64,000 bases of DNA from Kappaphycus alvarezii. Its lineage: Eukaryota; Rhodophyta; Florideophyceae; Gigartinales; Solieriaceae. The notes beneath the pieces are model-generated. The model did no database searches. It was not told the DNA's origin and worked only from the letters and a program-made list of their open reading frames with translations. Of this stretch, positions 1-63,169 are shown one piece after another; the stretch's first letter is position 1; the number at the start of each line of letters is the position of its first letter. Position numbers and translations under genes: made by a program. Where the stretch lies: NCBI GenBank assembly GCA_002205965.3, contig NADL03000176.1, forward strand, positions 1 to 64,000, in the 5' to 3' direction.

Positions 1-388
1 GCCTTGAGTAACGGGTGTGGAGTGCCATCGTACCATAGAATTCCACTGGGAATAGCGGGTGGTCTTGGCTATCGGTGAATCGCTGCACTACGGCTGAACC
101 CTTTTGGGAACAGTGCCTTGAGTAACGGGTGTGGAGTGCCATCGTACCATAGAATTCCACTGGGAATAGCGGTGGTCTTGGCTATCGGTGAATCGCTGCA
201 CTACGGCTGAACCCTTTTGGGAACAGTGCCTTTGAGTAACGAGTGTGGAGTGCCATCGTACCATAGAATTCCACAGGGATTAGCAGGTGGTCTTGGCTAT
301 CGGTGAATCGCTGCACTACGGCTGAACCCTTTTGGGAACAGTGCCTTGAGTAACGGGTGTGGAGTGCCATCGTACCATAGAATTCCAC
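1..388 (+). repeat. Leader minisatellite of family A, about 114-bp unit, more than three copies
   Basis: A unit of 113-115 bp beginning GCCTTGAGTAACGGG recurs at 1, 115, 228 and 343 (the last partial). Each unit carries GTGCCATCGTACCATAG and the phrase CTTTTGGGAACAGTGCC. The same array occurs in the leaders of A2 (two units), A3 (three units) and A4 (one unit), so unit number varies between copies. A single diverged relative occurs in the leader of element C. The role is unknown; leader position fits packaging or translation control, which is inference. Confidence 0.9.
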
Positions 389-741
389 TAGGTGCAAACT
401 GTGCGACGAACGGTTTGAAGCGGGTAACTCCGTGGACGTGAGCTTGGCGACTTGAACTAACGGCGAACTTGTTGACGTGCTGCTCCCACCGGTCCTCTTG
501 GGCAGATAACGGTGACGGTTGTGCAACCAGGTAGTAAGCGAACTTGTTTGCTGACAGGGTGTCGTAGCGTACTGCACAGTGACTGGGAGCATCCAACTGG
601 CCGCGCAATTTCCTGCAAGAGACTGGCTTGGCTTTAAGGGTGAACACTCGCCGGTGTTAATAGCCTCCTTGGGACGTCTCGTAGGGATCATTTGCACCTG
701 CCTGTGGTACTCGCACAGGTGGGAGAGGCAGCTGAAACCGC

Positions 742-918
742 GTCTTACCCGGAGAGTCTAACCGGGGGCCGGGAGTCCGACTCCTAGTGATCCTTCACAT
801 AGAGTGTTGGTGCGCTGCGCTGGACCTTGATTCACGCAAGGGAAGGTTAGTCAATCGCAAAAACCGTGTCTCACCTGGAGAGTCTAACTAGGGGCCCGGA
901 AGTCCGACTTCCTGCAGT
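742..918 (+). repeat. Imperfect direct duplication in the family A leader
   Basis: Two segments of roughly 45 bp, at about 742-787 and 868-918, share the phrase GGAGAGTCTAAC followed by a G-rich run and AGTCCGACT. Both sit upstream of gag and recur in the leaders of A2, A3 and A4. They are GC-rich and could fold, but I did not derive a firm structure. Leader sequence 389-741 and 919-1037 holds no gene that I can support. Confidence 0.7.
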
Positions 919-1037
919 TTGAGCACTCAAGCTCTGTACACACACTTCTTCTGAGACCATTGAGGTCTGGTATTTGCAACTTTGGGTTGCTGTTTTGCCT
1001 TGTACTTTCTTTATCTCTTAATCCTGTTAAGGGAAAG

Positions 1038-4000
1038 ATGGACGGCTCAGGCGTCTTTAAAATTGAAAAACTTAGTGACTCTAACTTCCATACCTGGAAG
1101 CAGAAAATCGAATATCTCCTGGCATTTCGAGAGCTTGACAATGTGATCACTGAAGCGGCTCCACCTGAAAACGATGAAGGGTACCGCGAATGGCAGAAAC
1201 GAGATGCCAAAGCGAGGGCTGTCATCGGTCTGACGCTGAGCGATGAGCACTTGGATCACGTTCGTGAACTGAAGTCTGCTTCTGATATGTGGAAAGCGTT
1301 GATGAATGTCTTTCAGCGCCGTAAACTACTCAATAAGCTCAGAGCTCGTCGTAGATTCTATTCTGCAGTTATGATGGAAGGGGAGCGAGCTTTGGCGTAT
1401 ATCAATCGTGTCCGCCAGCTTGCGTCGGATCTGCGAAACATGGAGGTCACAGTAGCGGATGAGGATATTGCTATGAGCGTGCTGTGTGGATTACCCGAAA
1501 AATTTGAGCACCTGATAGTCGCCATCGACACGGTGACAGATGAAAAATCACTCTCGCTAGATTTTGTGAAAAGCCGCCTTCTTCAAGAAGAACAGCGTCT
1601 AGCGGAGAAAAACTGGCGGAGCCTCAAGGTCGGACAGCTCAAATGCTTTGTTGGCAGAAATAAATCACAGCGACACTGCACCTACTGCAAAAAGCGAGGC
1701 CACGAGGAACAATTCTGCTGGAAGAAGCAGCGAGATGAACGAAATAGGTCAAAAGCCCATGCTTCGGAAAAGTCTGCGGGTCTCGTTGGTAGTGCCTCTT
1801 CAACATCGCCCGAAAGCAGTAACTCAGACGCCGATGATTTCGTGTGTTTGATGGCTCAAGGAGAGAACGCATCCGGTGCCACGGCTGCTCACCTGGCACA
1901 TTGATTCTGGGGCTACTGCTCACATGACTTCGAGCCGGGAACTGTTTGAAACCTTGGAGTCAGTGGACCCATTTGAGGTTTCTATGGCAATAACTCTACT
2001 GTCAAGGCCCACGGTAAAGGAATGATCACAGTCCAACTGCTTGTTGAAGGCGTTTCCGTTAAATGCAGGTTATCAAATGTCATGTATGTCCCGGGGTTAA
2101 AGTTCAATCTCATCTCAGTGTCGGCAATAGAGAATGGCGGACGGAAGATTGAGTTTGAGAATGGTGCATGTCGTATACTCGAAAACGTGCGAGTTATTGC
2201 CGAAGGAACACGTCGCAATGGTCTTTATGAATTAAATACGACTACGAAGGTTCCGACTGATAAACGAGGAATCGCTCTCGCCGTCAAGGACCTCTCGCTT
2301 TGGCACGCAAGACTTGCCCATGTAAACTCGGAAGAAATCAAAAGCATGGCTCGAACTGGAACAGTTCTTGGCATCGAAATAGATCCCAAACAACCCGTAA
2401 ATGTTTGCGAATCTTGCATTTATGGAAAAAGTCACCGTGCCACGATTCCTAAGCAGCCTGGACCCAGGGCCTCGCTGGTTCTCGATCTGGTTCACTCGGA
2501 CGTCCATGGTCCTGTGCAGACGCCGTCCCTAGGTGGGTCACGGTATTTTGTATCTTTCATTGATGACCACTCACGGTTTTGTGCCGTCTACACAATGAAA
2601 GAAAAGTCCGAAACGTTCGATTGCTTCAAACGGTTTCATGCTTACGCAGAACGTCATACAGGAAGGAAGTTGAAAAGGATTCATTTCGACAACGGTGGCG
2701 AGTATATTAATAATGTTTTCAAACGGTACCTGGCAGAACACGGTATAGAATCAATGCCGACAGTTCCGTATAACCCACATCAGAATGGGATCGCAGAACG
2801 TTTGAATAGAACTATAAACGATTTGGTTCGATCTATGCTTCACTGTAAGAATCTTCCGAATGCGTTCTGGGCAGAAGCAGTTGCAGTGGCAGTGTATGTC
2901 CGAAATCGGGTAACTACCAGGGCACTAGGGCGAAATGTTACGCCGTTTGAGCTATGGACTAAGCGAAAGCCGCATCTCGGGCATATGCGCGTCTTTGGAA
3001 GTAAGTGCTGGTTCACAATTCCAAAAGCCAATCGGGAAGGAAAACTATCTCCTAGAGCTCGAGAGGCGATCATGATTGGATACGCAAAGGGCTCACAGGG
3101 CTACAAATTATGGGACGTCTCCTCCAAGAAGGTGGTGATTTCCCGGGATGTGAAGTTTGATGAGATCAGTCAAACTGAACTCAATGCATCTACGGTGCTC
3201 AAAGATGTGCCCGGCGATCCCTCAGACACCGAGGACGAAGTTTCTCACCAAGTGTCTGAAGAATCTTCTGCTGTTGAGGAAGTTGATAATTCGAATCTGA
3301 ATAATGCTCCCTCTACTGGAGTGGCAGGGGAATCTGTTTCGGCTACGAATTCGCCTGAATTGGAACCGGTATCCGCAACTCGGAAATCTTCGAGGCACCG
3401 TCGTAAGCCTGGAGAATGGTGGAAGGCTACTCCAAGTGCTTTATTGTCGGCCTCCTGTCCACATGATCCTCAGTCATACAGAGAGGCCCTGTCCAACGGT
3501 GAAAGCGATAAATGGCAAGAGGCTATGGACAAAGAGTATCGCTCTCTCCTAGAGAACAACACCTGGGAGTTGGTTCCTCGTCCCGTGGATAAAAATGTAG
3601 TTTCCTGCAAGTGGGTTTATGTGACAAAAGACGATCCTCAGCCAGATGGTACAACTAAGAAACGCCACAAAGCTAGGCTTGTTGCTCGTGGTTTCTCCCA
3701 AGTTGAAGGAATTGACTACAATGAGACCTATGCCCTGGTAGTGAAGTTTACTTCAGTGCGTATTCTGCTGGCTATGGTTACATCTTTGAACTTATTGTTG
3801 CATCAGATGGATGTCGTGACGGCCTTTCTAAATGGAGATCTCGAAGAGTGTGTGTACATGGAGCAGCCGGAAGGATTCCGGATCAAGAATAAGGAAAATT
3901 ACGTTTGTAAGCTCGGGAAAGCGATCTACGGTCTCAAACAGGCGAGCCGCTGCTGGCACAGAAAAATCGACAAATTCCTGACAGAGCATTTGGGCTTACA

Positions 4001-4935
4001 GCGGAATCCGTCTGATGATTGCCTGTTCAGCAGCTGCATTGACGGAGCGGTTTTAGTCATTGCGTTGTATGTTGATGACTTGTTGATTGCTTGCAGCAAT
4101 GTTGCGCGGCTTGATGAAGTAAAGAAAGCCCTGAGCTCGTCTTTCCGTATGAAAGACCTGAACGAAGCTCGCCATTGCCTCGGCTTTGAGATCTATCGAA
4201 ATTCCACTGAGGGGAAGCTTTACTTGTCGCAGGAAAAGTACGCCCGCGCTGTAGCAGTCCGGTTTGGCCTTGGCTCAGCGAAAGGATCACACACGCCAAT
4301 GGAGACTGGTATCAACTTGAGTGTGGAGGGAGAAGTGGCGTCTGAGATCCCGTACCGTGAGGCAATTGGTTGTTTAATGTACTTGATGGTCGGTACACGT
4401 CCAGATATTGCATTCGCTGTTTGCCGCCTAGCTAAGTTTGTTGAGGCACCTACCAATTTGCATTGGCAATGTGTGAAACGACTTTTGAGATATCTGATCT
4501 CCACTTCCGGCCACAAATTGTGTTTCGATGGAAACGAATCTTTGGATCTAATTGGATACGTGGACTCGGATTATGCAGGTGATGTCACTACACGGAAGTC
4601 GACAAGTGGTTATGTCTTTATGATGGCTGGAGCGGCGGTGTCATGGTGCTCCCGTTTGCAGGAAGTTGTGACTTTGTCCTCAACTGAAGCGGAATACGTA
4701 AGCCTCAGTACTGGTGAAAAGGAAGCGGTATGGCTACGGCGATTGGTGGCGAATCTTAAAGTTGGACTTGTGCTTTGCAAAAATCCAATGGTGATATACG
4801 CAGATAACCAAGGTTCGATGCACTTGGCCATGAACGGGAGCAGTAACCGGCGAACGAAACACGTCGACGTCCGTTACCACTTCTGTAGACAAGCCATTGA
4901 GGAGGCGGAAATAAAATTGGAATACTGTCCCACTG
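1038..4935 (+). pseudogene. Family A gag-pol, copy A1 (fossil)
   Basis: The start ATG at 1038 gives MDGSGVFKIEKL, the typical opening of a UBN2-type copia Gag. Further on come a CCHC zinc knuckle (CTYCKKRGHEEQFC, C-x2-C-x4-H-x4-C), the protease motif DSGATAHMT, the integrase zinc-binding region (WHARLAHV ... CESCIYGK), integrase catalytic stretches DLVHSDVHG, FIDDHSRF and FDNGGEY, the reverse transcriptase box YVDDLLIA, and RNase H motifs YVDSDYAGD, SSTEAEY and YADNQGS. In intact relatives these proteins copy element RNA into DNA in virus-like particles and integrate it. The reading frame is broken in a few places, and the body runs into the poly(A) tract at 4936. An in-frame extension upstream of 1038 lacks an ATG and is not used here. 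Confidence 0.88.
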
Positions 4936-4970
<35 letters not shown>

Positions 4971-4973
4971 GGG
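4936..4973 (+). other. 32-bp poly(A) run followed by six Gs at the A1/T junction
   Basis: Thirty-two As (4936-4967) and six Gs (4968-4973) separate the A1 coding body from the T-type LTR that begins TGTTGATC at 4974. The G run placed directly before TGTT resembles the polypurine tract of both A (GAGGGGGG before TGTTGG) and T (GAGGGGGG before TGTTGATC). The poly(A) has no counterpart in A2 or A4. It may record copying of a polyadenylated RNA joined to a polypurine tract, or slippage. Confidence 0.7.
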
Positions 4974-5296
4974 TGTTGATCTATATATGTTGTGGTCCGC
5001 TCAGTGGCACAAGAGAGCCAGCGCTTGTGGCTTAGTGGTCAATGTGTTTTTCCTACATGGTAGCATCGCGGGTTCGAGCCCCGCAAGTGGTTGCATTGGT
5101 GAAAATTTAATTTGTGTGTTTTCGGCATTGCTTACTGTCCTATAGGTGATAGGAATGAGGTGTAAGATGTCTGAGTCTTTACAGCACTCTGTGGTCCCCT
5201 GAGTGAGGGGAGTGTTGAAATGGGCTGTGTATTCACTCAGTGCACCACTTGACATGCCAGCGCATGTGGCTTAGTGGTCAATGTGTTTTTCCTACA
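4974..5296 (+). mobile_element. TRIM-like small LTR element, T type II (323 bp)
   Basis: The element has an 84-bp LTR (4974-5057, TGTTGATC...CCTACA), an internal part of about 155 bp, a polypurine tract (GTGAGGGGAG ending at 5212) and a second 84-bp LTR (5213-5296, TGTTGAAATG...CCTACA). The two LTRs agree in their 3' halves but differ in their 5' halves: the left one begins like the type I elements at 30694 and 35118. Directly after the left LTR is TGGTAGCATCGCGG, a possible primer site opening with TGG, unlike the initiator-tRNA anticodon site of type I. A-box-like (TGGCTTAGTGG) and B-box-like (GGTTCGAGCCC) stretches suggest a tRNA-derived origin. It encodes nothing and would depend on enzymes from another element. 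Confidence 0.75.
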
Positions 5297-9494: not shown

Positions 9495-9990
9495 CGTCAT
9501 ACGTATAATAGAATCACATAACTGATTTTGGATGCAGTCGGTCCAATCTTCATCATAATTACGAACCTCATACATATGATGGAATCACATAACTGATTTG
9601 GATGCAGTACAAACCAATATCATAACTAACCACATACGTATGATGGAATCACATAACTGATTTTTTTGATGCAGTTGTACAAACCAATATCATAACTAGA
9701 AACCACATACGTATGATGGAATCACATAACTGATTTTGATGCAGTTGTACAAACCAATATCATAACTAGAACCACATACGTATGATGGAATCACATAACC
9801 GATTTTGATGCAGCTGTACAAACCAATATCATAACTAGAAACTCATACGTATGATGGAATCACATAACCGATTTTTGATGCAGCTGGATAACAATCATAA
9901 CTAGAAACCAATATATGATAATCACATAACCGATTTTGGATGCAGCTGGATAAAACCCGTAATCATAACTAGAATCCTCATACATAATAT
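9495..9990 (-). repeat. Minisatellite inside family B LTR 1, about 70-bp unit with a palindromic core
   Basis: Six to seven units of 67-73 bp each contain CATACGTATGATGGAATCAC, then GATGCAGTTGTAC and CCAATATCATAACTAG. The decamer CATACGTATG is its own reverse complement. Homologous arrays sit at about 16770-17135, 35427-35795, 55799-56165 and 62076-62590. Differences in unit number account for most of the length differences among B LTRs (1,296-1,437 bp). Confidence 0.88.
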
Positions 9991-10434
9991 AAAATCAAAT
10001 ACCTCTTTCTAGCAGTCATGACAGTATTGCCATAATTGATTCCTACTGTACAAACTCAGGTATAGTAAGGAGTACAGTACTTGGTATATTACGATGTACA
10101 GTGCGAAGTACAGTTCCTCATTTGGCACTAGTACAGTACGTGTACACACTGCACAAAAGGTTTCTACTCTTAGCTGTACCACGTGTACATCACATACACA
10201 ACTGCCACCACGTACACGTGTACATAGCTTTCCTCAGCATATCTCTCATACAGTATACTCATCATCCACTTATAGTACCCAACCCTACGTAAAATCACCC
10301 CATAAACAACATTTTGCCCTCTAAATCGCTGATCTCTCAAATCGTACTTTCGTCCCTGGGAACTTTGGATTTTTTCGGAATGCCTTAGGGCCACCCTTCA
10401 TTCAACACGTGTGCATGTGTACACGTGGAACATG

Positions 10435-22637: not shown

Positions 22638-23466
22638 TGTTAAACAAATGGATTTGTGGGAAGTGTTGGGAAAGAATTCGGAATGTTGGTCAAGGATTTG
22701 GAAGTGGTGCCGAGTCTAGCTGGTTTACTTTCAATCGCCCGAAGGCAGAGTATATATGCTACTTCATAGTGCTTCATCCAAAGTCACTTTCACAGTCACC
22801 GCTAACTCGTTCAACATCCGAGATTACAAACTAACCAATCATCAAATGCCTAATAACATCAAGAAGTGGCGGGAAGCATAACATCCAATCACAGCTTACC
22901 CCGCGTAAACAATTTGTACGTGCATCTGTACGTACACATTACAACAAAGCACAAAACATCACGTAATAAAAATCTACCAATAATATCACTTTCCGCTCGT
23001 ACAGAAATCTCCCGCCAAGGTAAATATCGTAACCTCTTGACCTCTCTCGATAATTCATAATTTATCGAATTATCTCGAGAGCACATATCACAAACGCCAC
23101 CATGTAATTTCCCGCCGGAAGTACTGTACACCTCACGAGAGGTAACAGAAACTGCTTCCACCATTCCCACGAGACAGTGACAGCACTGTGCAGTGCACTG
23201 TAATATTCACGTACGCACATCTTGGAATACTACTGTACAGTCATGAGTACAGTAGAATGTTACTGTACTGGATGTAGTAACGTACAGTAGAATATGTTCC
23301 CACTGTAATGGTACAGTAATGTAAGCAATATCAACAGTGCCCATACATCCAGTTCCAGTGCACACCAGACATTACAGTAGGTTTCCAACACAGTGCGCAT
23401 CCAGCATACTGTATCAAAGCGGTCCTACTTTATGTCCCGTTCCACCATTACAGTATGCTTCCAACA
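22638..23466 (-). repeat. 3' LTR of A2
   Basis: On the minus strand it runs TGTTGGAAGC...TTTAACA. It has a TATA-like ATATATAC on the minus strand near 22751-22758, which would place the transcript start close to the LTR 3' end. Many copies of GTACAGTA or TACTGTAC occur in its upstream half. Confidence 0.93.
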
Positions 23467-23475
23467 CCCCCCTCT
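23467..23475 (-). promoter_or_regulatory. Polypurine tract of A2
   Basis: The minus strand reads AGAGGGGGG directly before the LTR start TGTTGG. In this class it primes plus-strand DNA synthesis. Confidence 0.85.
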
Positions 23476-23476
23476 G

Positions 23477-26400
23477 TCACTGGCTTAGTTGTTTTAGCCC
23501 TACGCGAGAAATGAGCCATTCTAGCTTCACTCTACCGAGGGCTTTCGTCAGGAGATCTGCGACCATTGTTTCAGTGGGACAGTATTCCAATTTTATTTCC
23601 GCCTCCTCAATGGCTTGTCTACAGAAGTGGTAACGGACGTCGATGTGTTTCGTTCGCCGGTTACTGCTCCCGTTCATGCCAAGTGCATCGAACCTTGGTT
23701 ATCTGCGTATATCACCATTGGATTTTTGCAAAGCACAAGTCCAACTTTAAGATTCGCCACCAATCGCCGTAGCCATACCGCTCCTTTACACCAGTACTGA
23801 GGCTTACGTATTCCGCTTCAGTTGAGGACAAAGTCACAACTTCCTGCAAACGGGAGCACCATGACACCGCCGCTCCAGCCATCATAAAGACATAACCACT
23901 TGTCGACTTCCGTGTAGTGACATCACCTGCATAATCCGAGTCCACGTATCCAATTGGATCCAAAGATTCGTTTCCATCGAAACACAATTTGTGGCGGAAG
24001 TGGAGATCAGATATCTCAAAAGTCGTTTCACACATTGCCAATGCAAATTGGTAGGTGCCTCAACAAACTTAGCTAGGCGGCAAACAGCGAATGCAATATC
24101 TGGACGTGTACCGACCATCAAGTACATTAAACAACCAATTGGCTCACGGTACGGGATCTCAGACGCCACTTCTCCTCCACACTCAAGTTGATACCAGTCT
24201 CCATTGGCGTGTGTGATCCTTTCGCTGAGCCAAGGCCAAACCGGACTGCTACAGCGCGGGCGTACTTTTCCTGCGACAAGTAAAGCTTCCCCTCAGTGGA
24301 ATTTCGATAGATCTCAAAGCCGAGGCAATGGCGAGCTTCGTTCAGGTCTTTCATACGGAAAGACGAGCTCAGGGCTTTCTTTACTTCATCAAGCCGCGCA
24401 ACATTGCTGCAAGCAATCAACAAGTCATCAACATACAACGCAATGACTAAAACCGCTCCGTCAATGCAGCTGCTGAAAGGCAATCATCAGACGGATTCCG
24501 CTGTAAGCCCAAATGCTCTGTCAGGAATTTGTCGATTTTTCTGTGCCAGCAGCGGCTCGCCTGTTTGAGACCGTAGATCGCTTTCCCGAGCTTACAAACG
24601 TAATTTTCCTTATTCTTGATCCGGAATCCTTCCGGCTGCTCCATGTACACACACTCTTCGAGATCTCCATTTAGAAAGGCCGTCACGACATCCATCTGAT
24701 GCAACAATAAGTTCAAAGATGTAACCATAGCCAGCAGAATACGCACTGAAGTAAACTTCACTACCGGGGCATAGGTCTCATTGTAGTCAATTCCTTCAAC
24801 TTGGGAGAAACCACGAGCAACAAGCCTAGCTTTGTGGCGTTTCTTAGTTGTACCATCTGGCTGAGGATCGTCTTTTGTCACATAAACCCACTTGCAGGAA
24901 ACTACATTTTTATCCGCGGGACGAGGAACCAACTCCCAGGTGTTGTTCTCTAGGAGAGAGCGATACTCTTTGTCCATAGCCTCTTGCCATTTATCGCTTT
25001 CACCGTTGGACAGGGCCTCTCTGTATGACTGAGGATCATGTGGACAGGAGGCCGACAATAAAGCACTTGGAGTAGCCTTCCACCATTCTCCAGGCTTACG
25101 ACGGTGCCTCGAAGATTTCCGAGTTGCGGATACCGGTTCCAATTCAGGCGAATTCGTAGCCGAAACAGATTCCCCTGCCACTCCAGTAGAGGGTGCATTA
25201 TTCAGATTCGAATTATCAACTTCCTCAACAGCAGAAGATTCTTCAGACACTTGGTGAGAAACTTCGTCCTCGGTGTCTGAGGGATCGCCGGGCACATCTT
25301 TGAGCACCGTAGATGCATTGAGTTCAGTTTGACTGATCTCATCAAACTTCACATCCCGGGAAATCACCACCTTCTTGGAGGAGACGTCCCATAATTTGTA
25401 GCCCTGTGAGCCCTTTGCGTATCCAATCATGATCGCCTCTCGAGCTCTAGGAGATAGTTTTCCTTCCCGATTGGCTTTTGGAATTGTGAACCAGCACTTA
25501 CTTCCAAAGACGCGCATATGCCCGAGATGCGGCTTTCGCTTAGTCCATAGCTCAAACGGCGTAACATTTCGCCCTAGTGCCCTGGTAGTTACCCGATTTC
25601 GGACATACACTGCCACTGCAACTGCTTCTGCCCAGAACGCATTCGGAAGATTCTTACAGTGAAGCATAGATCGAACCAAATCGTTTATAGTTCTATTCAA
25701 ACGTTCTGCGATCCCATTCTGATGTGGGTTATACGGAACTGTCGGCATTGGATTCTATACCGTGTTCTGCCAGGTACCGTTTGAAAACATTATTAATATA
25801 CTCGCCACCGTTGTCGAAATGAATCCTTTTCAACTTCCTTCCTGTATGACGTTCTGCGTAAGCATGAAACCGTTTGAAGCAATCGAACGTTTCGGACTTT
25901 TCTTTCATTGTGTAGACGGCACAAAACCGTGAGTGGTCATCAATGAAAGATACAAAATACCGTGACCCACCTAGGGACGGCGTCTGCACAGGACCATGGA
26001 CGTCCGAGTGAACCAGATCGAGAACCAGCGAGGCCCTGGGTCCAGGCTGCTTAGGAATCGTGGCACGGTGACTTTTTCCATAAATGCAAGATTCGCAAAC
26101 ATTTACGGGTTGTTTGGGATCTATTTCGATGCCAAGAACTGTTCCAGTTCGAGCCATGCTTTTGATTCCTTCCGAGTTTACATGGGCAAGTCTTGCGTGC
26201 CAAAGCGAGAGGTCCTTGACGGCGAGAGCGATTCCTCGTTTATCAGTCGGAACCTTCGTAGTCGTATTTAATTCATAAAGACCATTGCGACGTGTTCCTT
26301 CGGCAATAACTCGCACGTTTTCGAGTATACGACATGCACCATTCTCAAACTCAATCTTCCGTCCGCCATTCTCTATTGCCGACACTGAGATGAGATTGAA

Positions 26401-27468
26401 CTTTAACCCCGGGACATACATGACATTTGATAACCTGCATTTAACGGAAACGCCTTCAACAAGCAGTTGGACTGTGATCATTCCTTTACCGTGGGCCTTG
26501 ACAGTAGAGTTATTGCCCATAGAAACCTCAAATGGGTCCACTGACTCCAAGGTTTCAAACAGTTCCCGGCTCGAAGTCATGTGAGCAGTAGCCCCAGAAT
26601 CAATGTGCCAGGTGATAGCAGCCGTGGCACCGGATGCGTTCTCTCCTTGAGCCATCAAACACACGAAATCATCGGCGTCTGAGTTACTGCTTTCGGGCGA
26701 TGTTGAAGAGGCACTACCAACGAGACCCGCAGACTTTTCCGAAGCATGGGCTTTTGACCTATTTCGTTCATCTCGCTGCTTCTTCCAGCAGAATTGTTCC
26801 TCGTGGCCTCGCTTTTTGCAGTAGGTGCAGTGTCGCTGTGATTTATTTCTTGCCACCAAAGCATTTGAGCTGTCCGACCTTGAGGCTCCGCCAGTTTTCT
26901 CCGCTAGACGCTGTTCTTCTTGAAGAAGGCGGCTTTTCACAAAATCTAGCGAGAGTGATTTTTCATCTGTCACCGTGTCGATGGCGACTATCAGGTGCTC
27001 AAATTTTTCGGGTAATCCACACAGCACGCTCATAGCAATATCCTCATCCGCTACTGTGACCTCCATGTTTCGCAGATCCGACGCAAGCTGGCGGACACGA
27101 TTGATATACGCCAAAGCTCGCTCTCCTTCCATCATAACTGCAGAATAGAATCTACGACGAGCTCTGAGCTTATTGAGTAGTGTACGGCGCTGAAAGACAT
27201 TCATCAACGCTTTCCACATATCAGAAGCAGACTTCAGTTCACGAACGTGATCCAAGTGCTCATCGCTCAGCGTCAGACCGATGACAGCCCTCGCTTTGGC
27301 ATCTCGTTTCTGCCATTCGCGGTACCCTTCATCGTTTTCAGGTGGAGCCGCTTCAGTGATCACATTGTCAAGCTCTCGAAATGCCAGGAGATATTCGATT
27401 TTCTGCTTCCAGGTATGGAAGTTAGAGTCACTAAGTTTTTCAATTTTAAAGACGCCTGAGCCGTCCAT
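23477..27468 (-). pseudogene. Family A gag-pol, copy A2 (fossil, near-whole)
   Basis: The gag ATG is at 27468 (MDGSGVFKIEKL) and the stop at 23477 (after LKQLSQ). One 605-codon open stretch covers Gag with UBN2-like region and CCHC knuckle, protease (WHIDSGATAHMT), integrase zinc-binding region and most of the catalytic core. A 433-codon stretch covers the rest of integrase and the first half of reverse transcriptase, including HQMDVVTAFLNGD. The YVDD box and RNase H follow. The expected size is about 1,330 codons in one frame. A few breaks are present. Confidence 0.92.
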
Positions 27469-28118
27469 CTTTCCCTTAACAGGATTAAGAGATAAAGAAA
27501 GTACAAGGCAAAACAGCAACCCAAAGTTGCAAATACCAGACCTCAATGGTCTCAGAAGAAGTGTGTGTACAGAGCTTGAGTGCTCAAACTGCAGGAAGTC
27601 GGACTTCCGGGCCCCTGGTTAGACTCTCCAGGTGAGACACGGTTTCTGCGATTGACTAACCTTCCCTTGCGTGAATCAAGGTCCAGCGCAGCGCACCAAC
27701 ACTCTATGTGAAGGATCACTAGGAGTCGGACTCCCGGCCCCCGGTTAGACTCTCCGGGTAAGACGCGGTTTCAGCTGCCTCTCCCACCTGTGCGAGTACC
27801 ACAGGCAGGTGCAAATGATCCCTACGAGACGTCCCAAGGAGGCTACTAACACCGGCGAGTGTTCACCCTTAAAGCCAAGCCAGTCTCTTGCAGGAAATTG
27901 CGCGGCCAGTTGGATGCTCCCAGTCACTGTGCAGTACGCTACGACACCCTGTCCAGCAAACAAGTTCGCTTACTACCTGGTTTCACAACCGTCACCGTTA
28001 TCTGCCCAAGAGGACCGGTGGGAGCAGCACGTCAACAAGTTCGCCGTTAGTTCAAGTCGCCAAGCTCACGTCCACGGAGTTACCCGCTTCAACCGTTCGT
28101 CGCACAGTTTGCACCTAG

Positions 28119-28337
28119 TGGAATTCTATGGTACGATGGCACTCCACACCCGTTACTCAAGGCACTGTTCCCAAAAGGGTTCAGCCGTAGTGCAGCGATT
28201 CACCGATAGCCAAGACCACCCGCTATTCCCAGTGGAATTCTATGGTACGATGGCACTCCACACCCGTTACTCAAGGCACTGTTCCCAAAAGGGTTCAGCC
28301 GTAGTGCAGCGATTCACCGATAGCCAAGACCACCAGG
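28119..28337 (-). repeat. Leader minisatellite of A2, two units
   Basis: Two units of the A leader repeat described at 1-388 lie between the gag start and the primer site. The leader from 27469 to 28118 corresponds to 389-1037 of A1. The part at 28338-28550 is a purine-rich stretch ending in an A run (28527-28534) and has no gene that I can support. Confidence 0.9.
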
Positions 28338-28550
28338 AGGTCGCACCAACTGAATTGAAATCAAGATACCAAGCAACCAACAACTAGAGAAAGCAACACA
28401 CAAGCACACAACAAGAATCGCTTTCAAACCGAACAGCGCCCAAAGCGCAAAAAGAAATCAACAGCTCGCAGCGCCCAACGCGCAGAAGGAGAAACAAAAG
28501 AGCTGGAGACAACAGCAGACCAAACAAAAAAAAATGCAGCAATTAGAGTC

Positions 28551-28564
28551 CTGGGCCCATAACC
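28551..28564 (-). promoter_or_regulatory. Primer-binding site of A2, half-tRNA type
   Basis: The minus strand reads GGTTATGGGCCCAG, directly abutting the LTR end TTTAACA with no spacer. It is the same site as in families B and C and T type I. Confidence 0.92.
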
Positions 28565-29393
28565 TGTTAAACAAATGGATTTGTGGGAAGTGTTGGGAAA
28601 GAATTCGGAATGTTGGTCAAGGATTTGGAAGTGGTGCCGAGTCTAGCTGGTTTACTTTCAATCGCCCGAAGGCAGAGTATATATGCTACTTCATAGTGCT
28701 TCATCCAAAGTCACTTTCACAGTCACCGCTAACTCGTTCAACATCCGAGATTACAAACTAACCAATCATCAAATGCCTAATAACATCAAGAAGTGGCGGG
28801 AAGCATAACATCCAATCACAGCTTACCCCGCGTAAACAATTTGTACGTGCATCTGTACGTACACATTACAACAAAGCACAAAACATCACGTAATAAAAAT
28901 CTACCAATAATATCACTTTCCGCTCGTACAGAAATCTCCCGCCAAGGTAAATATCGTAACCTCTTGACCTCTCTCGATAATTCATAATTTATCGAATTAT
29001 CTCGAGAGCACATATCACAAACGCCACCATGTAATTTCCCGCCGGAAGTACTGTACACCTCACGAGAGGTAACAGAAACTGCTTCCACCATTCCCACGAG
29101 ACAGTGACAGCACTGTGCAGTGCACTGTAATATTCACGTACGCACATCTTGGAATACTACTGTACAGTCATGAGTACAGTAGAATGTTACTGTACTGGAT
29201 GTAGTAACGTACAGTAGAATATGTTCCCACTGTAATGGTACAGTAATGTAAGCAATATCAACAGTGCCCATACATCCAGTTCCAGTGCACACCAGACATT
29301 ACAGTAGGTTTCCAACACAGTGCGCATCCAGCATACTGTATCAAAGCGGTCCTACTTTATGTCCCGTTCCACCATTACAGTATGCTTCCAACA
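28565..29393 (-). repeat. 5' LTR of A2
   Basis: An 829-bp partner of 22638-23466. By eye I see no difference between them. The outer end is followed by the duplication CATCG (29394-29398) and then the remainder of B3. Confidence 0.93.
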
Positions 29394-29588
29394 CATCGAT
29401 CCTCCTCCTTGATCTTCTCCGCTACTCATTGCAATATTCTAGAGTGCTAATGTTCTGTTCGAAGATCCCAAGCCGGGGACCGATAGTCCCTTGTAGTGGC
29501 AAGCCCACCTCTATAAGAACACAGCACACGAAACTCTAGACTAAGGCAAAGGCCAAAGACGTCGCTTCAAACAAACAAATGGATCTCT

Positions 29589-30342: not shown

Positions 30343-30693
30343 TAATGGGAATCGGGGAGGGTGAAGGACTTTGCTGGACGGATGAAGTTGCGGGCTTGGC
30401 TACCCAGAATTTACTCGGAACTCTAGAATCCTGGCCTTAAGTACAACCTACAACTACTTTCTAACTCACTGCGTCCACTAACAGAATCCCACAAACTATT
30501 GCCATTTGAGCGGATTTCAAGATCTTGGCCCGGTAATAACAGTCATTAGGGGCAAATTTGGAACTGCTTCCAAAGTTGACAAGTTTGTGTAAATAGGTTG
30601 GCCCAATACACACATCAATACAGTACCTTATTTTGCAGACTTACCGGAACCGAATTCCCTTGTGCCAAAATAACGGACTCAATCCGTCATACG

Positions 30694-31004
30694 TGTTGAT
30701 CTATATATGTTGTGGTCCGCTCAGTGGCACAAGAGAGCCAGCGCATGTGGCTCAGTGGTTAACTCTTTCTACAGGTTATGGGCCCAGTTGCCTCTGTGGT
30801 CGCGGGTTCGAGCCCCGCTGGGTGCACTGAGTTGGATATTTGTTATGAGCGTTACTGTAATGCTCTGTGTAAGCCCTGAACCCCTCGACAAGCATCTTGA
30901 TGTAGTGCCTCTGAGCGAGGGGGGTGTTGATCTATATATGTTGTGGTCCGCTCAGTGGCACAAGAGAGCCAGCGCATGTGGCTCAGTGGTTAACGTTTTC
31001 TACA
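30694..31004 (+). mobile_element. TRIM-like small LTR element, T type I, left copy (311 bp)
   Basis: Two 80-bp LTRs (30694-30773 and 30925-31004, TGTTGATC...TCTACA) enclose a primer site GGTTATGGGCCCAG (30774-30787), about 125 bp of non-coding DNA and a polypurine tract GAGCGAGGGGGG (30913-30924). An A-box-like TGGCTCAGTGG (30748-30758) sits in the LTR and a B-box-like GGTTCGAGCCC (30805-30815) in the internal part, the layout of a tRNA-type RNA polymerase III promoter. No protein is encoded. The size fits TRIM or SMART elements. Confidence 0.85.
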
Positions 31005-31017
31005 GGTTATGGGCCAG
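31005..31017 (+). promoter_or_regulatory. Primer-binding site at the T/A3 junction
   Basis: This initiator-tRNA type site follows the T LTR, but the bases after it (GACTCTAATTGCTGC) are those after the A2 primer site, not those of T. It is therefore the point where T and A sequence meet. Confidence 0.82.
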
Positions 31018-31232
31018 GACTCTAATTGCTGCATTTTTTTTTGTTTGGTCTGCTGTTGTCTCCAGCTCTTTTGTTTCTCCTTCTGCGCGTTGGGCGCTGC
31101 GAGCTGTTGATTTCTTTTTGCGCTTTGGGCGCTGTTCGGTTTGAAAGCGATTCTTGTTGTGTGCTTGTGTGTTGCTTTCTCTAGTTGTTGGTTGCTTGGT
31201 ATCTTGATTTCAATTCAGTTGGTGCGACCTCC

Positions 31233-31566
31233 TGGTGGTCTTGGCTATCGGTGAATCGCTGCACTACGGCTGAACCCTTTTGGGAACAGTGCCTTGAGTA
31301 ACGGGTGTGGAGTGCCATCGTACCATAGAATTCCACTGGGAATAGCGGGTGGTTTTGGCTATCGGTGAATCGCTGCACTACGGCTGAACCCTTTTGGGAA
31401 CAGTGCCTTTGAGTAACGAGTGTGGAGTGCCATCGTACCATAGAATTCCACAGGGATTGGCAGGTGGTCTTGGCTATCGGTGAATCGCTGCACTACGGCT
31501 GAACCCTTTTGGGAACAGTGCCTTGAGTAACGGGTGTGGAGTGCCATCGTACCATAGAATTCCACT
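31233..31566 (+). repeat. Leader minisatellite of A3, three units
   Basis: Three units of the family A leader repeat. The segment 31018-31232 before it corresponds to the T-rich A leader (complement of 28338-28550). Sequence 31567-32213 is ordinary A leader without a supported gene. Confidence 0.9.
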
Positions 31567-32213
31567 AGGTGCAAACTGTGCGACGAATGGTTGAAGCGGG
31601 TAACTCCGTGGACGTGAGCTTGGCGACTTGAACTAACGGCGAACTTGTTGACGTGCTGCTCCCACCGGTCCTTTTGGGCAGATAACGGTGACGGTTGTGA
31701 AACCAGGTAGTAAGCGAACTTGTTTGCTGGACAGGGTGTCGTAGCGTACTGCACAGTGACTGGGAGCATCCAACTGGCCGCGCAATTTCCTGCAAGAGAC
31801 TGGCTTGGCTTTAAGGGTGAACACTCGCCGGTGTTAGTAGCCTCCTTGGGACGTCTCGTAGGGATCATTTGCACCTGCCTGTGGTACTCGCACAGGTGGG
31901 AGAGGCAGCTGAAACCGCGTCTTACCCGGAGAGTCTAACCGGGGCCGGGAGTCCGACTCCTAGTGATCCTTCACATAGAGTGTTGGTGCGCTGCGCTGGA
32001 CCTTGATTCACGCAAGGGAAGGCTAGTCAATCGCAGAAACCGTGTCTCACCTGGAGAGTCTAACCAGGGGCCCGGAAGTCCGACTTCCTGCAGTTTGAGC
32101 ACTCAAGCTCTGTACACACACTTCTTCTGAGACCATTGAGGTCTGGTATTTGCAACTTTGGGTTGCTGTTTTGCCTTGTACTTTCTTTATCTCTTAATCC
32201 TGTTAAGGGAAAG

Positions 32214-35023
32214 ATGGACGGCTCAGGCGTCTTTAAAATTGAAAAACTTAGTGACTCTAACTTCCATACCTGGAAGCAAAATCGAATATCTCCTGGCATT
32301 TCGAGAGCTTGACAATGTGATCACTGAAGCGGCTCCACCTGAAAACGATGAAGGGTACCGCAAATGGCAGAAACGAGATGCCAAAGCGAGGGCTGTCATC
32401 GGTCTGACGCTGAGCGATGAGCACTTGGATCACGTTCGTGAACTGAAGTCTGCTTCTGATATGTGTAAAGCGTTGATGAATGTCTTTCAGCGCCGTACAC
32501 TACTCAATAAGCTCAGAGCTCGTCGTAGATTCTATTCTGCAGTTATGATGGAAGGAGAGCGAGCTTTGGCCTATATCAATCGTGTCCGCCAGCTTGCGTC
32601 GGATCTGCGAAACATGGAGGTCACAGTAGCGGATGAGGATATTGCTATGAGCGTGCTGTGTGGATTACCCGAAAAATTTGAGCACCTGATAGTCGCCATC
32701 GACACGGTGACAGATGAAAAATCACTCTCGCTAGATTTTGTGAAAAAGCCGCCTTCTTCAAGAAGAACAGCGTCTAGCGGAGAAAACTGGCGGAGCCTCA
32801 AGGTCGGACAGCTCAAATGCTTTGGTGGCAAGAAATAAATCACAGCGACACTGCACCTACTGCAAAAAGCGAGGCCACGAGGAACAATTCTGCTGGAAGA
32901 AGCAGCGAGATGAACGAAATAGGTCAAAAGCCCATGCTTCGGAAAAGTCTGCGGGTCTCGTTGGTAGTGCCTTTCAACATCGCCCGAAAGCAGTAACTCA
33001 GACGCCGATGATTTTTTTGTGTTGTTGATGGCTCAAGGAGAGAACGCATCCGGTGCCACGGCTGCTATCACCTGGCACATTGATTCTGGGGCTACTGCTC
33101 ACATGACTTCGAGCCGGGAACTGTTTGAAACCTTGGAGTCAGTGGACCCATTTGAGGTTTCTATGGGCAATAATCTACTGTCAAGGCCCACGGTAAAGGA
33201 ATGATCACAGTCCAACTGCTTGTTGAAGGCGTTTCCGTTAAATGCAGGTTATCAAATGTCATGTATGTCCCGGGGTTAAAGTTCAATCTCATCTCAGTGT
33301 CGGCAATAGAGAATGGCGGACGGAAGATTGAGTTTGAGAATGGTGCATGTCGTATACTCGAAAACGTGCGAGTTATTGCCGAAGGAACACGTCGCAATGG
33401 TCTTTATGAATTAAATAAGACTACGAAGGTTCCGACTGATAAACGAGGAATCGCTCTCGCCGTCAAGGACCTCTCCGCTTTGGCACGCAAGACTTGCCCA
33501 TGTAAACTCGGAAGGAATCAAAGCATGCTCGAACTGGAACAGTTCTTGGCATCGAAATAGATCCCAAACAACCCGTAAATGTTTGCGAATCTTGCATTTA
33601 TGGAAAAAGTCACCGTGCCACGATTCTAAGCAGCCTGGACCCAGGGCCTCGCTGGTTCTCGATCTGGTTCACTCGGACGTCCATGGTCCTGTGCAGACGC
33701 CGTCCCTAGGTGGGTCACGGTATTTTGTATCTTTCATTGATGACCACTCACGGTTTTGTGCCGTCTACACAATGAAAGAAAAGTCCGAAACGTTCGATTG
33801 CTTCAAACGGTTTCAATGCTTACGCAGAACGTCATACAGGAAGGAAGTTGAAAAGGATTCATTTCGACAACGGTGGCGAGTATATTAATAATGTTTTCAA
33901 ACGGTACCTGGCAGAACACGGTATAGAATCAATGCCGACAGTTCCGTATAACCCACATCAGAATGGGATCGCAGAACGTTTGAATAGAACTATAAACGAT
34001 TTGGTTCGATCTATGCTTCACTGTAAGAATCTTCCGAATGCGTTCTGGGCAGAAGCAGTTGCAGTGGCAGTGTATGTCCGAAATCGGGTAACTACCAGGG
34101 CACTAGGGCGAAATGTTACGCCGTTTGAGCTATGGACTAAGCGAAAGCCGCATCTCGGGCATATGCGCGTCTTTGGAGTAAGTGCTGGTTCACAATTCCA
34201 AAAGCCAATCGGGAAGGAAACTATCTCCTAGAGCTCGAGAGGCGATCATGATTGGATACGCAAAGGGCTCACAGGGCTACAAATTATGGGACGTCTCCTC
34301 CAAGAAAGTGGTGATTTCCCGGGATGTGAAGTTTGATGAGATCAGTCAACTGAACTCAATGCATCTACGGTGCTCAAAGATGTGCCCGGCGATCCCTCAG
34401 ACACCGAGGACGAAGTTTCTCACCAAGTGTCTGAAGAATCTTCTGCTGTTGAGGAAGTTGATAATTCGAATCTGAATAATGCACCCTCTACTGGAGTGGC
34501 AGGGGAATCTGTTTCGGCTACGATTCGCCTGAATTGGAACCGGTATCCGCAACTCGGAAATCTTCGAGGCACCGTCGTAAGCCTGGAGAATGGTGGAAGG
34601 CTACTCCAAGTGCTTTATTGTCGGCCTCCTGTCCACATGATCCTCAGTCATACAGAGAGGCCCTGTCCAACGGTGAAAGCGATAAATGGCAAGAGGCTAT
34701 GGACAAAGAGTATCGCTCTCTCCTAGAGAACAACACCTGGGAGTTGGTTCCTCGTCCCGCGGATAAAAATGTAGTTTCCTGCAAGTGGGTTTATGTGACA
34801 AAAGACGATCCTCAGCCAGATGGTACAACTAAGAAACCACAAAGCTAGGCTTGTTGCTCGTGGTTTCTCCCAGTTGAAGGAATTGACTACAATGAGACCT
34901 ATGCCCGGTAGTGAAGTTTACTTCAGTGCGTATTCTGCTGGCTATGGTTACATCTTTGAACTTATTGTTGCATCAGATGGATGTCGTGACGGCCTTTCTA
35001 ATGGAGATCTTGAAGAGTGTGTG
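32214..35023 (+). pseudogene. Family A gag-pol, copy A3 (partial fossil inside the composite)
   Basis: The gag ATG is at 32214 (MDGSGVF). The UBN2 region, CCHC knuckle (CTYCKKRGHEEQFC), protease, integrase catalytic stretches (DLVHSDVHG, FIDDHSRF, FDNGGEY) and the beginning of reverse transcriptase (HQMDVVTAFL) are present. The body ends at 35023, where a T LTR begins, so the later part of pol is absent. It has many more breaks than A2 or A4, and could not supply enzymes. Confidence 0.87.
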
Positions 35024-35117
35024 TGTTGATCTATATATGTTGTGTTCCGCTCAGAGGCACAGAGAGCCAGCGCATGTGGCTCAGTGGTTAACGTTTTCTA
35101 CAGGTTATGGGCCCAGA
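35024..35117 (+). repeat. Lone T type I LTR with primer site
   Basis: A 79-bp LTR (35024-35102) is followed by GGTTATGGGCCCAG (35103-35116) and one extra base, and then directly by the next T LTR. The T internal part is missing between them. Short GT-repeat similarity marks its junction with A3. Confidence 0.85.
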
Positions 35118-35426
35118 TGTTGATCTATATATGTTGTGGTCCGCTCAGTGGCACAAGAGAGCCAGCGCATGTGGCTCAGTGGTTAACTCTTTCTACAGGT
35201 TATGGGCCCAGTTGCCTCTGTGGTCGCGGGTTCGAGCCCCGCTGGGTGCACTGAGTTGGTATTTGTTATGAGCGTTACTGTAATGCTCTGTGTAAGCCCT
35301 GAACCCTGGACAAGCACCTTGTGGTAGTGCCTCTGAGCGAGGGGGGTGTTGATCTATATATATTGTGGTCCGCTCAGTGGCACAAGAGAGCCAGCGCATG
35401 TGGCTCAGTGGTTAACGTTTTCTACA
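35118..35426 (+). mobile_element. TRIM-like small LTR element, T type I, right copy (309 bp)
   Basis: LTRs at 35118-35197 and 35347-35426 (80 bp each), a primer site at 35198-35211 and a polypurine tract of GAGCGAGGGGGG ending at 35346. It is almost the same as 30694-31004. Its outer end is followed by the duplication ATACG. Confidence 0.87.
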
Positions 35427-36391
35427 ATACGTATAATAGAATCACATAACGGATTTTGGATGCAGTCGGTCCAATCTCATCATAATTACGAACCTCATAC
35501 ATATGATGGAATCACATAACTGATTTTTGGATGCAGTTGTACAAACCAATATCATAACTACAAACCAATACGTATGATGGAATCACATAACTGATTCTTG
35601 AATGCAGTTGTACAAACCAATATCATAACTAGAAACCACATACGTATGATGGAATCACATAACCGATTTTTGGATGCAGCTGGATAAAACCCGTAATCAT
35701 AACTAGAATCCTCATACGTATGATGGAATCACATAACCGATTTTTGGATGCAACTGGATAAAACCCGTAATCATAACTAGAATCCTCATACATAATATAA
35801 AATCAAAAAACTCTTTCTAGCAGTCATGACAGTATTGCCATAATCGATTCCTACTGTACAAACTCAGGTATAGTAAGGAGTACAGTACTTGGTTATTACG
35901 ATGTACAGTGCGAAGTACAGTTCCTCATTTGGCACTAGTACAGTACGTGTACACACTGCACAAAAGGTTTCTACTCTTAGCTGTACCTCGTGTACATCAC
36001 ATACAAACTGCCACCACGTACACGTGTACATAGCTTTCCTCAGCATATCTCTCATACAGTATACTCATCATCCACTTATAGTACCCAACCCTACGTAAAA
36101 TCACCCCATAAACAACATTTTGCCCTCTAAATCGCTGATCTCTCAAATCGTACTTTCGTCCCTGGGAACTTTGGATTTTTTTCGGAGTGCCTTAGGGCCA
36201 CCCTTCATTCAACACGTGTGCATGTGTACACGTGGAACATGCCTCATCCCTCTTATGATATTTGGCACCGATGTGGGTCATGTGATCGTCTTGCCAAATC
36301 AACAACCTCATGCCTCTCATGAGGTTTGGCAGCGATGTGGGGGTCATGTGATCGTCTTGCAAATCAACAACACCCCCCTCGATTACATGAC

Positions 36392-61718: not shown

Positions 61719-63169
61719 CTGGGCCCATAACCTAATGGGAATCGGGAGGGTGAAGGACTTTGCTGGACGGATGAAGTTGCGGGCTTGGCTACCCAGAATT
61801 TACTCGGAACTCTAAAATCCTGGCCTTAAGTACAACCTACAACTACTTTCTAACTCACTGCGTCCACTAACAGAATCCCACAAACTGAGCCATTTGAGCG
61901 GATTTCAAGATCTTGGCCCGGTGATAACAGTCATTAGGGGCAAATTTGGAACTGCTTCCAAAGTTGACAAATTTGTGTAAATAGGTTGGCCCAATACACA
62001 CATCAATACAGTACCTTATTTTGCAGACTTACCGGAAACGAATTCCCTTGTGCCAAAATAACGGACTCAATCCGTCATACGTATAATAGAATCACATAAC
62101 TGATTTTGGATGCAGTCGGTCCAATCTTCATCATAATTACGAACCTCATACATATGATGGAATCACATAACTGATTTTTGGATGCAGTTGTACAAACCAA
62201 TATCATAACTAAACCATACGTATGATGGAATCACATAACTGATTTTTGGATGCAGTTGTACAAACCAATATCATAACTAGAAACCACATACGTATGATGG
62301 AATCACATAACTGATTTTTGGATGCAGTTGTACAAACCAATATCATAACTAGAAACCACATACGTATGATGGAATCACATAACTGATTTTTGGATGCAGT
62401 TGTACAAACCAATATCATAACTAGAAACCACATACGTATGATGGAATCACATAACTGATTTTTGGATGCAGCTGGATAAAACCCAATATCATAACTAGAA
62501 ACCTCATACATATGATGAAATCACATAACCGATTTTTGGATGCAGCTGGATAAAACCCTAATCATAACTAGAATCCTCATACATAATATAAAATCAAATA
62601 CCTCTTTCTAGCAGTCATGACAGTATTGCCATAATTGATTCCTACTGTACAAACTCAGGTATAGTAAGGAGTACAGTACTTGGTATATTACGATGTACAG
62701 TGCGAAGTACAGTTCCTCATTTGGCACTAGTACAGTACGTGTACAACACTGCACAAAAGGTTTCTACTCTTAGCTGTACCACGTGTACATCACATACACA
62801 ACTGCCACCACGTACACGTGTACATAGCTTTCCTCAGCATATCTCTCATACAGTATACTCATCATCCACTTATAGTACCCTACCCTACGTAAAATCACCC
62901 CATAAACAACATTTTGCCCTCTAAATCGCTGATCTCTCAAAATCGTACTTTCGTCCCTGGGAACTTTGGATTTCTTCCGGAATGCCTTAGCGCCACCCTT
63001 CATTCAACGTGTGCATGTGTACACGTGGAACATGCCTCATGCCTCTTATGAGGTTTGGCACCGATGTGGGGTCATGTGATCGTCTTGCCAAATCAACAAC
63101 ACCTCATGCCTCTCATGAGGTTTGGCAGCGATGTGGGGGTCATGTGATCGTCTTGCCAAATCAACAACA
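61719..63169 (-). repeat. Primer-binding site of B5 and family B LTR 5 (shared by B5 and B6)
   Basis: The primer site is at 61719-61732, and the LTR at 61733-63169 (1,437 bp), the longest B LTR here because it has about seven to eight minisatellite units (62076-62590). Sequence 61484-61718 is leader with no further gene. Confidence 0.87.

What the first reader, a model, noticed from the sequence alone, without database searches (positions are those of the whole stretch)
30694..35426. A composite that moved family A internal DNA between TRIM-like LTRs
Seen: one 4.7-kb insertion with ATACG on both sides holds five T-type LTRs of about 80 bp, two T internal parts and the leader plus part of gag-pol of family A, but no A LTR. 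The left T-to-A join falls exactly at the primer site that T and A share. Known: TRIMs lack proteins and rely on partners, and reverse transcriptases switch templates at shared sequences. Inference: family A is the helper of T, and a tandem T/A transcript or recombinant was integrated in one event. Direct evidence of a TRIM swapping its LTRs onto its helper body would be unusual.
Basis: partly seen in the sequence, partly recalled or inferred. Interest (0 to 1): 0.86.

Follow-up and report, generated by a model that had tools for sequence, protein, structure and literature searches.

The report
Miniature retrotransposon fused to helper elements
A tiny parasitic jumping gene and the full-size jumping genes that probably copy it are found stitched together, mostly at one 14-letter site where copying starts, which suggests that their RNAs are copied together and that this site works as a common joint.

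Summary
30694-35426 holds five ~80-bp T LTRs, two T internal parts (t) and a pol-truncated internal region of Ty1/copia family A (a), no A LTR, between ATACG repeats; sibling units in the window show the empty site. The T-to-A join lies in the shared primer site (PBS) GGTTATGGGCCCAG.
It is not a one-off. The window's own 336-Mb genome holds more T/copia joins; seven loci (window included) have 5-bp target duplications. Partners are A and relatives of window families B and C: A-t-T-a-A, B'-t-T-b'-B', C-t-T-c-C, T-t-T-t-T-a-A-t-T, C-t-T/t2-T2. Of 20 cross-family joins with identified partners that I read, 15 run LTR-PBS-internal. So A is one partner, not the only helper.
Best explanation: T and copia RNAs are reverse-transcribed together; a plus strand ending in LTR+PBS pairs with another family's minus strand, chaining elements before one integration. 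Shown: joins, PBS, duplications. Inferred: co-packaging, and which strand moves.
T's tRNA-like polymerase III promoter boxes are split by the LTR border (A box in LTR, B box internal), unlike published Helenus. New variant of known kinds (TRIMp3, TRIM arrays, template-switch complexes).

The parts
30689..30693 (.). target-site duplication ATACG, left
30694..30773 (+). T LTR1 (TGTTG...CTACA), U5 tail CTCTTTCTACA
30748..30758 (+). A box TGGCTCAGTGG of the tRNA-like pol III promoter, inside the LTR
30774..30924 (+). T internal part t (PBS GGTTATGGGCCCAG at 30774-30787; purine tract ...GAGGGGGG at the end)
30805..30815 (+). B box GGTTCGAGCCC, inside the internal part, not the LTR
30925..31004 (+). 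T LTR2, U5 tail CGTTTTCTACA
31005..35023 (+). family A (Ty1/copia) internal region: PBS, leader with 115-bp repeats, gag and part of pol, truncated in the reverse transcriptase region
   Evidence: 98.5-98.9% to the other long A copies over 32210-35022; gag and pol domains of sister copies
35023..35026 (+). A-to-T join: microhomology GTGT, no purine tract
35024..35102 (+). T LTR3
35103..35117 (+). bare 14-nt PBS copy plus one A between LTR3 and LTR4
35118..35197 (+). T LTR4
35198..35346 (+). second T internal part t
35347..35426 (+). T LTR5
35427..35431 (.). target-site duplication ATACG, right
1..5296 (+). second chimera in the window (left end off the contig): A internal to about 4938, A run 4936-4967, GGGGGG, hybrid LTR 4974-5057 (T U3 joined to T2 R-U5), T2 internal 5058-5212, T2 LTR 5213-5296
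5020..5092 (+). tRNA-Lys-like fold called by ARAGORN across the LTR/internal border of T2
22638..29394 (-). complete family A element with two identical ~830-bp LTRs, used as reference

Best explanation
T is a TRIM with a split, tRNA-like polymerase III promoter. It encodes no protein and is copied by Ty1/copia machinery. In this genome T and several copia families share one primer-binding site, complementary to the 5' half of initiator tRNA-Met. During reverse transcription a plus strand that has copied an LTR and the 14 primer nucleotides ends in PBS. Instead of returning to its own minus strand it pairs with the PBS complement at the end of a minus strand of another family (or of another T) copied in the same particle. 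Each such transfer adds one LTR-PBS-internal join, so chains of mixed elements form. The chain is then integrated once by a copia integrase, which makes one 5-bp duplication. The window's 4.7-kb insert is such a chain, with two further accidents: an RT jump out of A pol into a T LTR at a 4-nt microhomology, and an end join that trapped a bare LTR+PBS tail. Shown: structures, PBS joins, target duplications, several partner families. Inferred: co-packaging, which strand transfers, pol III transcription.
For: Seven loci (window included) with cross-family joins and 5-bp duplications, capitals for LTRs and small letters for internals: window ATACG; C765, T-t-T-t-T-a-A-t-T, CCCTC (C224 is the same insertion, 98.9% over 9.9 kb, its right copy one C short); C739 A-t-T-a-A, CATAG (right LTR read with one extra A); C595 T-a-A-..-T-..-T, CTATC; C506 B'-t-T-b'-B', GATGT, if its left LTR begins TGTTTG (C471 is the same insertion); C209 C-t-T-c-C, CTTAA; C85 C-t-T/t2-T2, ACATT. 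Counting each insertion once over these seven, C161, C20, C200 and the left-edge chimera, 15 of 20 cross-family joins with identified partners run LTR-PBS-internal. Of 33 listed exact genome matches with the T-type tail before the PBS, 25 go on into t (23 of them read in context; one, in C161, ends an A LTR), 1 into a T variant, 5 into A, 2 into B' (loci). Outer LTRs are identical while inner ones differ in the C765 chain and in a T dimer on C20. C85 has a C LTR at the left and a T2 LTR at the right of one integration, which one-molecule plus-strand transfer does not give. A run of 32 A between A pol and the T purine tract (4936-4967) points to an RNA template. LTR3 with a bare 14-nt PBS looks like the transfer intermediate.
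Against: Five of the 20 cross-family joins are not at the PBS: 35024, 4936-4967, two in C595, one in C200; C20 also has an inverted A/A join. Outer LTRs are not always alike: window 3 of 80 positions differ, with LTR1 equal to LTR4 instead; C595 2; the C23 T array 5; the outer A LTRs of C739 differ by 6 substitutions and 2 gap columns, those of C161 by 4 and 1. C161 has imperfect flanks (ATGTT/ATGCC). Of 11 T copies whose flanks were read only 3 (two of them one site) had an exact duplication. No RNA, particle or cDNA data. All loci come from one assembly with duplicated regions, and the genome tool lists only part of its matches. A minus-strand hop at the PBS explains most chains as well.
Confidence: 0.65

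Rival explanations
1. Minus-strand hop: the minus strand ends at the PBS because RNase H has removed U5-R of its RNA; its end pairs with the PBS of a co-packaged RNA of another family, copies that RNA's U5-R, jumps by R to its 3' end and goes on. Normal plus-strand transfer then gives outer LTRs of one family.
For: Explains LTR-PBS-internal joins, within-family internal-LTR joins and outer LTRs of one family in C739, C161, C595, C506 and C209. The left A LTR of C161 ends TTCTACA, a T-like U5 tail, next to T internal. Left and right U5 tails differ in the window's T units and in a C200 T copy.
Against: C85, with C and T2 outer LTRs and one target duplication (ACATT), needs plus-strand transfer between molecules.
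Confidence: 0.22
2. DNA-level recombination after integration (unequal crossing over or gene conversion) between neighbouring elements joined their parts.
For: The genome has clear tandem duplications: C200 repeats one chimera with its flank, C161 holds A copies about 6 kb apart, C23 holds 28 T LTRs in one array.
Against: At the PBS joins the two families have only about 14-17 nt in common; seven chains are bracketed by one 5-bp duplication; in two, outer LTRs are identical while inner ones differ.
Confidence: 0.08
3. A genomic T/A tandem locus is transcribed through and integrated as one transcript.
For: Would give one integration with one duplication.
Against: No two independent chains that I read have the same order with the same partner, and at least three partner families occur, so no single source locus; the two t parts in the window differ.
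Confidence: 0.05

Closest known systems
Helenus / TRIMp3 (Kojima 2024, PMC10886601; parts 1-3 of 6, discussion, legends and tables read)
   Same: TRIM without protein genes, tRNA-like A and B boxes; as in fungal Helenus, PBS matching the iMet anticodon loop, 5-bp duplications and Copia as likely helper
   Different: There the tRNA-like sequence with both boxes lies in the LTRs; here the LTR/internal border and the PBS split it: A box in LTR, B box internal. I saw no fused helper elements in the parts read.
Template-switching complexes (Sabot and Schulman 2007, PMC1950507; abstract and passages read)
   Same: Extra inner LTRs and 5-bp duplications around the whole
   Different: Those are complexes of like elements (two Angela, one Squiq, one Opie) explained by jumps at R, with highly similar outer LTRs; here different families are joined, mostly at the PBS.
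Tandemly arrayed TRIMs and Cassandra arrays (Gao 2016, PMC4717578; Kalendar 2020, PMC7215508; passages read)
   Same: T dimers and a long T array with one target duplication
   Different: The published arrays in the passages read are of one family; here copia bodies lie inside the chains.
LTR swapping between autonomous and non-autonomous elements in soybean (recalled; only a listing of papers that use the term was seen)
   Same: Exchange of LTRs between partner elements
   Different: Here the partners have unrelated LTRs and the usual exchange point is the PBS.

Membership tests
TRIM (T element) | short LTRs, no coding capacity, PBS and purine tract, total under 1 kb | tested here: met
   LTR about 80 bp, internal 149-158 bp, element 309-318 bp in four T copies, PBS and GAGGGGGG present
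TRIM (T element) | 5-bp target duplication on single elements | tested here: met
   C544 CCAAG; 3 of 11 copies: C403 and C663 ATAAC (one site) and C521 AGAAA; the other 8 of 11 showed none, and the C200 copies read GGACA/GGACG
Helenus | tRNA-like sequence with A and B boxes inside the LTR | tested here: not met
   A box at LTR position 55; B box at element position 98-118, in the internal part, in 5 of 5 elements
TRIMp3 | transcription by RNA polymerase III | not testable with these tools
   Boxes match the consensus and lie in strongly conserved blocks between T and T2, but no RNA data; TTTT or TTTTT lies between the boxes in the 5' LTR of 3 of the 5 elements
Cassandra | 5S rRNA sequence in the LTR | tested here: not met
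   Rfam scan of the window: no match at E 0.1
Ty1/copia (family A) | gag, then integrase before reverse transcriptase | tested here: met
   Retrotran_gag_2 in one frame; gag_pre-integrs, rve, SH3_retrovirus, RVT_2 in this order in the next
Template-switching complex | one target duplication around the complex | tested here: met
   ATACG with 4 empty sibling sites
Template-switching complex | near-identical outer LTRs | tested here: inconclusive
   Window 3 of 80 differ; C765 0; C20 dimer 0; C595 2; C23 array 5; C739 6 substitutions and C161 4 in ~830; C209 95.9%

The most novel reading that the evidence does not exclude
The half-tRNA primer site is a universal joint: plus strands that end after the 14 copied primer nucleotides can be passed among any elements with that site, so a miniature pol III-promoted element and several unrelated copia families routinely swap LTRs and bodies. 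T's promoter, split so that it is complete only when a T LTR meets a T internal, would make each swap also a promoter swap.
Probability: 0.33. Interest if true: 0.78.

Novelty: new variant of a known kind. Interest (0 to 1): 0.62.

Why it matters
Kojima 2024 (PMC10886601) writes that it is not known how a TRIM's dependence on its autonomous partner is maintained, and Gao 2016 (PMC4717578) found related larger elements for only 11 of 289 TRIM subfamilies, four of them with all domains. Fused chains are physical evidence that a TRIM was copied in the same reaction as particular copia families with unrelated LTRs, sharing the PBS and short end signals. They also suggest one way in which tandem TRIM arrays start, and a way to find partners of other TRIMs: look for LTR-PBS-internal joins between families.

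Tried and rejected
Considered and dropped: (a) the T LTRs differ in U5 (CTCTTT before t, CGTTTT at the right) because the 5' LTR must lack a pol III terminator: other T copies have TTTT or TTTTT in the 5' LTR, so rejected. (b) A is the exclusive helper: rejected by joins to B' and C relatives. (c) Local rearrangement or one assembly error: rejected by other loci with their own duplications, though all are from one assembly. (d) Likeness of A LTRs as a test of same-cycle origin: little power, since 9 of 14 A LTRs compared differ from one reference by 0-2 substitutions; the outer pairs of C739 and C161 differ by 6 and 4, which does not help my reading. (e) 18 A copies' 3' ends were sampled for A-LTR-to-t joins: 16 showed the A LTR end, none led into t. 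(f) Two pattern scans and one protein scan of viral contigs and one pattern scan of bacterial and archaeal genomes found no relative. (g) The host was not identified. Among hits with an organism name the highest identity is to Chondrus crispus, a red alga (50% for A pol, 58% for B pol), but several land-plant proteins have better E-values for A, and many hits are unnamed environmental contigs.

Not done: a full count of T-to-A joins (the request did not complete), a search for the poly(A) join elsewhere, the left ends of the C99, C615, C20 and C473 chains. C99, C473 and C615 are left out of the count of 20 joins: partner internal or LTR not identified in C99 and C473, PBS damaged in C615. T-to-T2 changes are not counted as cross-family.
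Full report
What was checked. The insert at 30694-35426 is as described: T LTR, t, T LTR, truncated A internal, T LTR, bare PBS, T LTR, t, T LTR (capitals LTRs, small letters internal parts), with ATACG on both sides. The target is a repeat unit B that recurs in the window; the 4 other copies of the site that I printed have the sequence without the insert. The join T LTR2 to A lies in the PBS. The join A to LTR3 (35024) is inside A's reverse transcriptase region with four letters, GTGT, in common. Between LTR3 and LTR4 there is GGTTATGGGCCCAG and one A only.

Families. A is a Ty1/copia element (gag frame, then integrase before reverse transcriptase, in sister copies at 960-4979 and 43815-40768) with LTRs of about 830 bp that are identical in one complete copy, 22638-29394. 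T is 309-318 bp in the four copies measured, with LTRs of about 80 bp. A second type, T2, stands at 4974-5296. T and A share ACAGGTTATGGGCCCAG and the purine tract plus LTR start GAGGGGGG/TGTTG. The PBS is complementary to the anticodon stem and loop of initiator tRNA-Met (recalled); [quoted passage not shown] B has the same PBS and C has it with one change.

A second chimera in the window. At 1-5296, A internal breaks off in pol, a run of 32 A follows (4936-4967; the first three belong to A), then GGGGGG and a T LTR whose right part is T2, then T2 internal and T2 LTR. The A run suggests that a prematurely polyadenylated A RNA was a template. Its left end is off the contig, since the window is the first 64 kb of contig C175.

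The rest of the genome. The window's genome has 336 Mb in 884 contigs. A T-LTR-plus-A-leader query hit nine places with both parts, the window included; C765 and C224 are one insertion (98.9% over 9.9 kb), and three C200 places are tandem copies that share the right flank of the C739 insertion. That search scored only 40 of 430 candidates, so it is a lower bound. Loci fetched and read: C765 T-t-T-t-T-a-A-t-T, CCCTC; C739 A-t-T-a-A, CATAG; C595 T-a-A-[PBS fragment and a piece of A leader]-T-[36 nt of A, about 17 nt of t]-T, CTATC; C161 A-t-T-[short spacer]-T-a-A, flanks ATGTT/ATGCC; C20 ...a-A-t-T beside an inverted piece of A. A PBS pattern with up to two mismatches has 784 matches, none for the reversed control. 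Of the places it lists, all exact, 33 have the T-type tail TCTACA, of which 25 continue into t (one of them, C161:14676, is the end of an A LTR; 23 were read in context), 1 into a T variant, 5 into A and 2 into a B relative; 27 have TTAACA and A internal; 8 have TTAACA before t, of which 3 are A LTR, 4 T variants and 1 another LTR; the rest have TCAACA. A pattern for the A tail before t, up to three mismatches, gave 86 matches; the A-to-t joins that I know among them are C224, C739, C765, C20 and C161 (read); most of the others were not read.

Other partners. Twenty small loci, then larger stretches: C506 and C471 carry the same insertion B'-t-T-b'-B' (99.1% over 9.2 kb), with GATGT on both sides if the left LTR begins TGTTTG; C20 shows that site without it. 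C209 is C-t-T-c-C with CTTAA; its outer C LTRs are 95.9% alike against 89.6 and 92.3% to the window's C LTR. C85 is C-t-T/t2-T2 with ACATT, that is, LTRs of different families at the ends of one integration. C99, C615 and C473 hold older or incomplete joins whose far ends were not all read. No exact match listed joins the A tail to a B-type internal; the pattern would not show joins to C or joins from B and C LTR ends. T or T2 takes part in each cross-family join that I read.

Rule. Counting each insertion once, I read 20 cross-family joins with identified partners. Fifteen run from LTR through the PBS into the other family's internal part: window 1, C765 2, C739 2, C595 2, C161 2, C20 1, C506 2, C209 2, C85 1. 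Five do not: 35024, 4936-4967, two in C595 and one in C200. In C739, C506 and C209 the plan is X-t-T-x-X for three different X; C161 has the same plan with an extra T LTR.

Mechanism. Reverse transcription passes through an intermediate that ends in LTR plus PBS, plus-strand strong-stop DNA, and a minus strand that ends in the complement of PBS next to the internal part (recalled textbook steps). If two families with the same PBS are copied in one particle, the first can pair with the second. Two such transfers give X-t-T-x-X; one gives C85; several give C765. Transfers within T would give T arrays, for example the T dimer on C20 (TTCGG; outer LTRs identical, inner one different) and perhaps the start of the array on C23 with 28 LTRs and GTCGG. 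The bare PBS after LTR3 has the length expected if copying of the primer stops before tRNA position 26, a methylated G in many eukaryotic tRNAs (recalled; inference). The minus-strand version is a close rival and both may happen. Against a clean single cycle in every case stand the outer LTR differences listed in the Against line.

Promoter. T has TGGCTCAGTGG at position 55, in the LTR, and GGTTCGARCCC at 112-118, in the internal part; T2 has them at 55 and 98. In the alignment of T with T2 these two boxes lie in strongly conserved blocks. ARAGORN calls a tRNA-Lys across the T2 border but nothing in T. Polymerase III use is inference. The T/T2 switch in the hybrid LTR at 4974-5057 lies just upstream of the A box, where the transcript should begin.

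Prior work. PMC10886601 (parts 1-3 of 6, discussion, legends and tables read) defines Helenus with the tRNA-like part in the LTRs. PMC1950507 (abstract and passages) gives template-switch complexes of like elements. PMC4717578 and PMC7215508 (passages) give tandem TRIM arrays; PMC11302176 (passages) infers a partner pair from shared motifs. I saw no report of TRIM/helper chains joined at the PBS in the listings of searches of the held open library; most subscription papers are missing there, and most listed papers were not opened.

Noticed in passing
window 5296-64000: About five tandem copies of a ~6.3-kb copia-derived unit B (starts near 5296, 11727, 18888, 37508, 57881), with A insertions at shared sites as solo LTRs, a full copy and a copy interrupted by family C.
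   Followed up: partly
window 9497-10004, 35427-35812, 62075-62603: Arrays of ~71-bp repeats with variable copy number, probably part of the B LTR (a B relative on C506, L079, has such repeats before its PBS).
   Followed up: partly
L018 (C23:712883-719331): Array of 28 T LTRs and 27 internals bracketed by one 5-bp duplication GTCGG.
   Followed up: partly
L013 near 2420-2454 and L084 near 1145-1162: T LTR start preceded by CTGGGCCCATAACC, the complement of the PBS and thus the sense of the primer tRNA half; unexplained.
   Followed up: no
L019 1150-1240: Inverted A/A junction at the shared letters GTCCTG next to the A leader, like a snap-back of the minus-strand end near the PBS.
   Followed up: no
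L014-L017 (C200:22500-56000): Tandem 6.75-kb repeats of one T-a-A chimera with its flank, and three copies of a T insertion; in the one compared, left and right LTRs differ at two positions.
   Followed up: no
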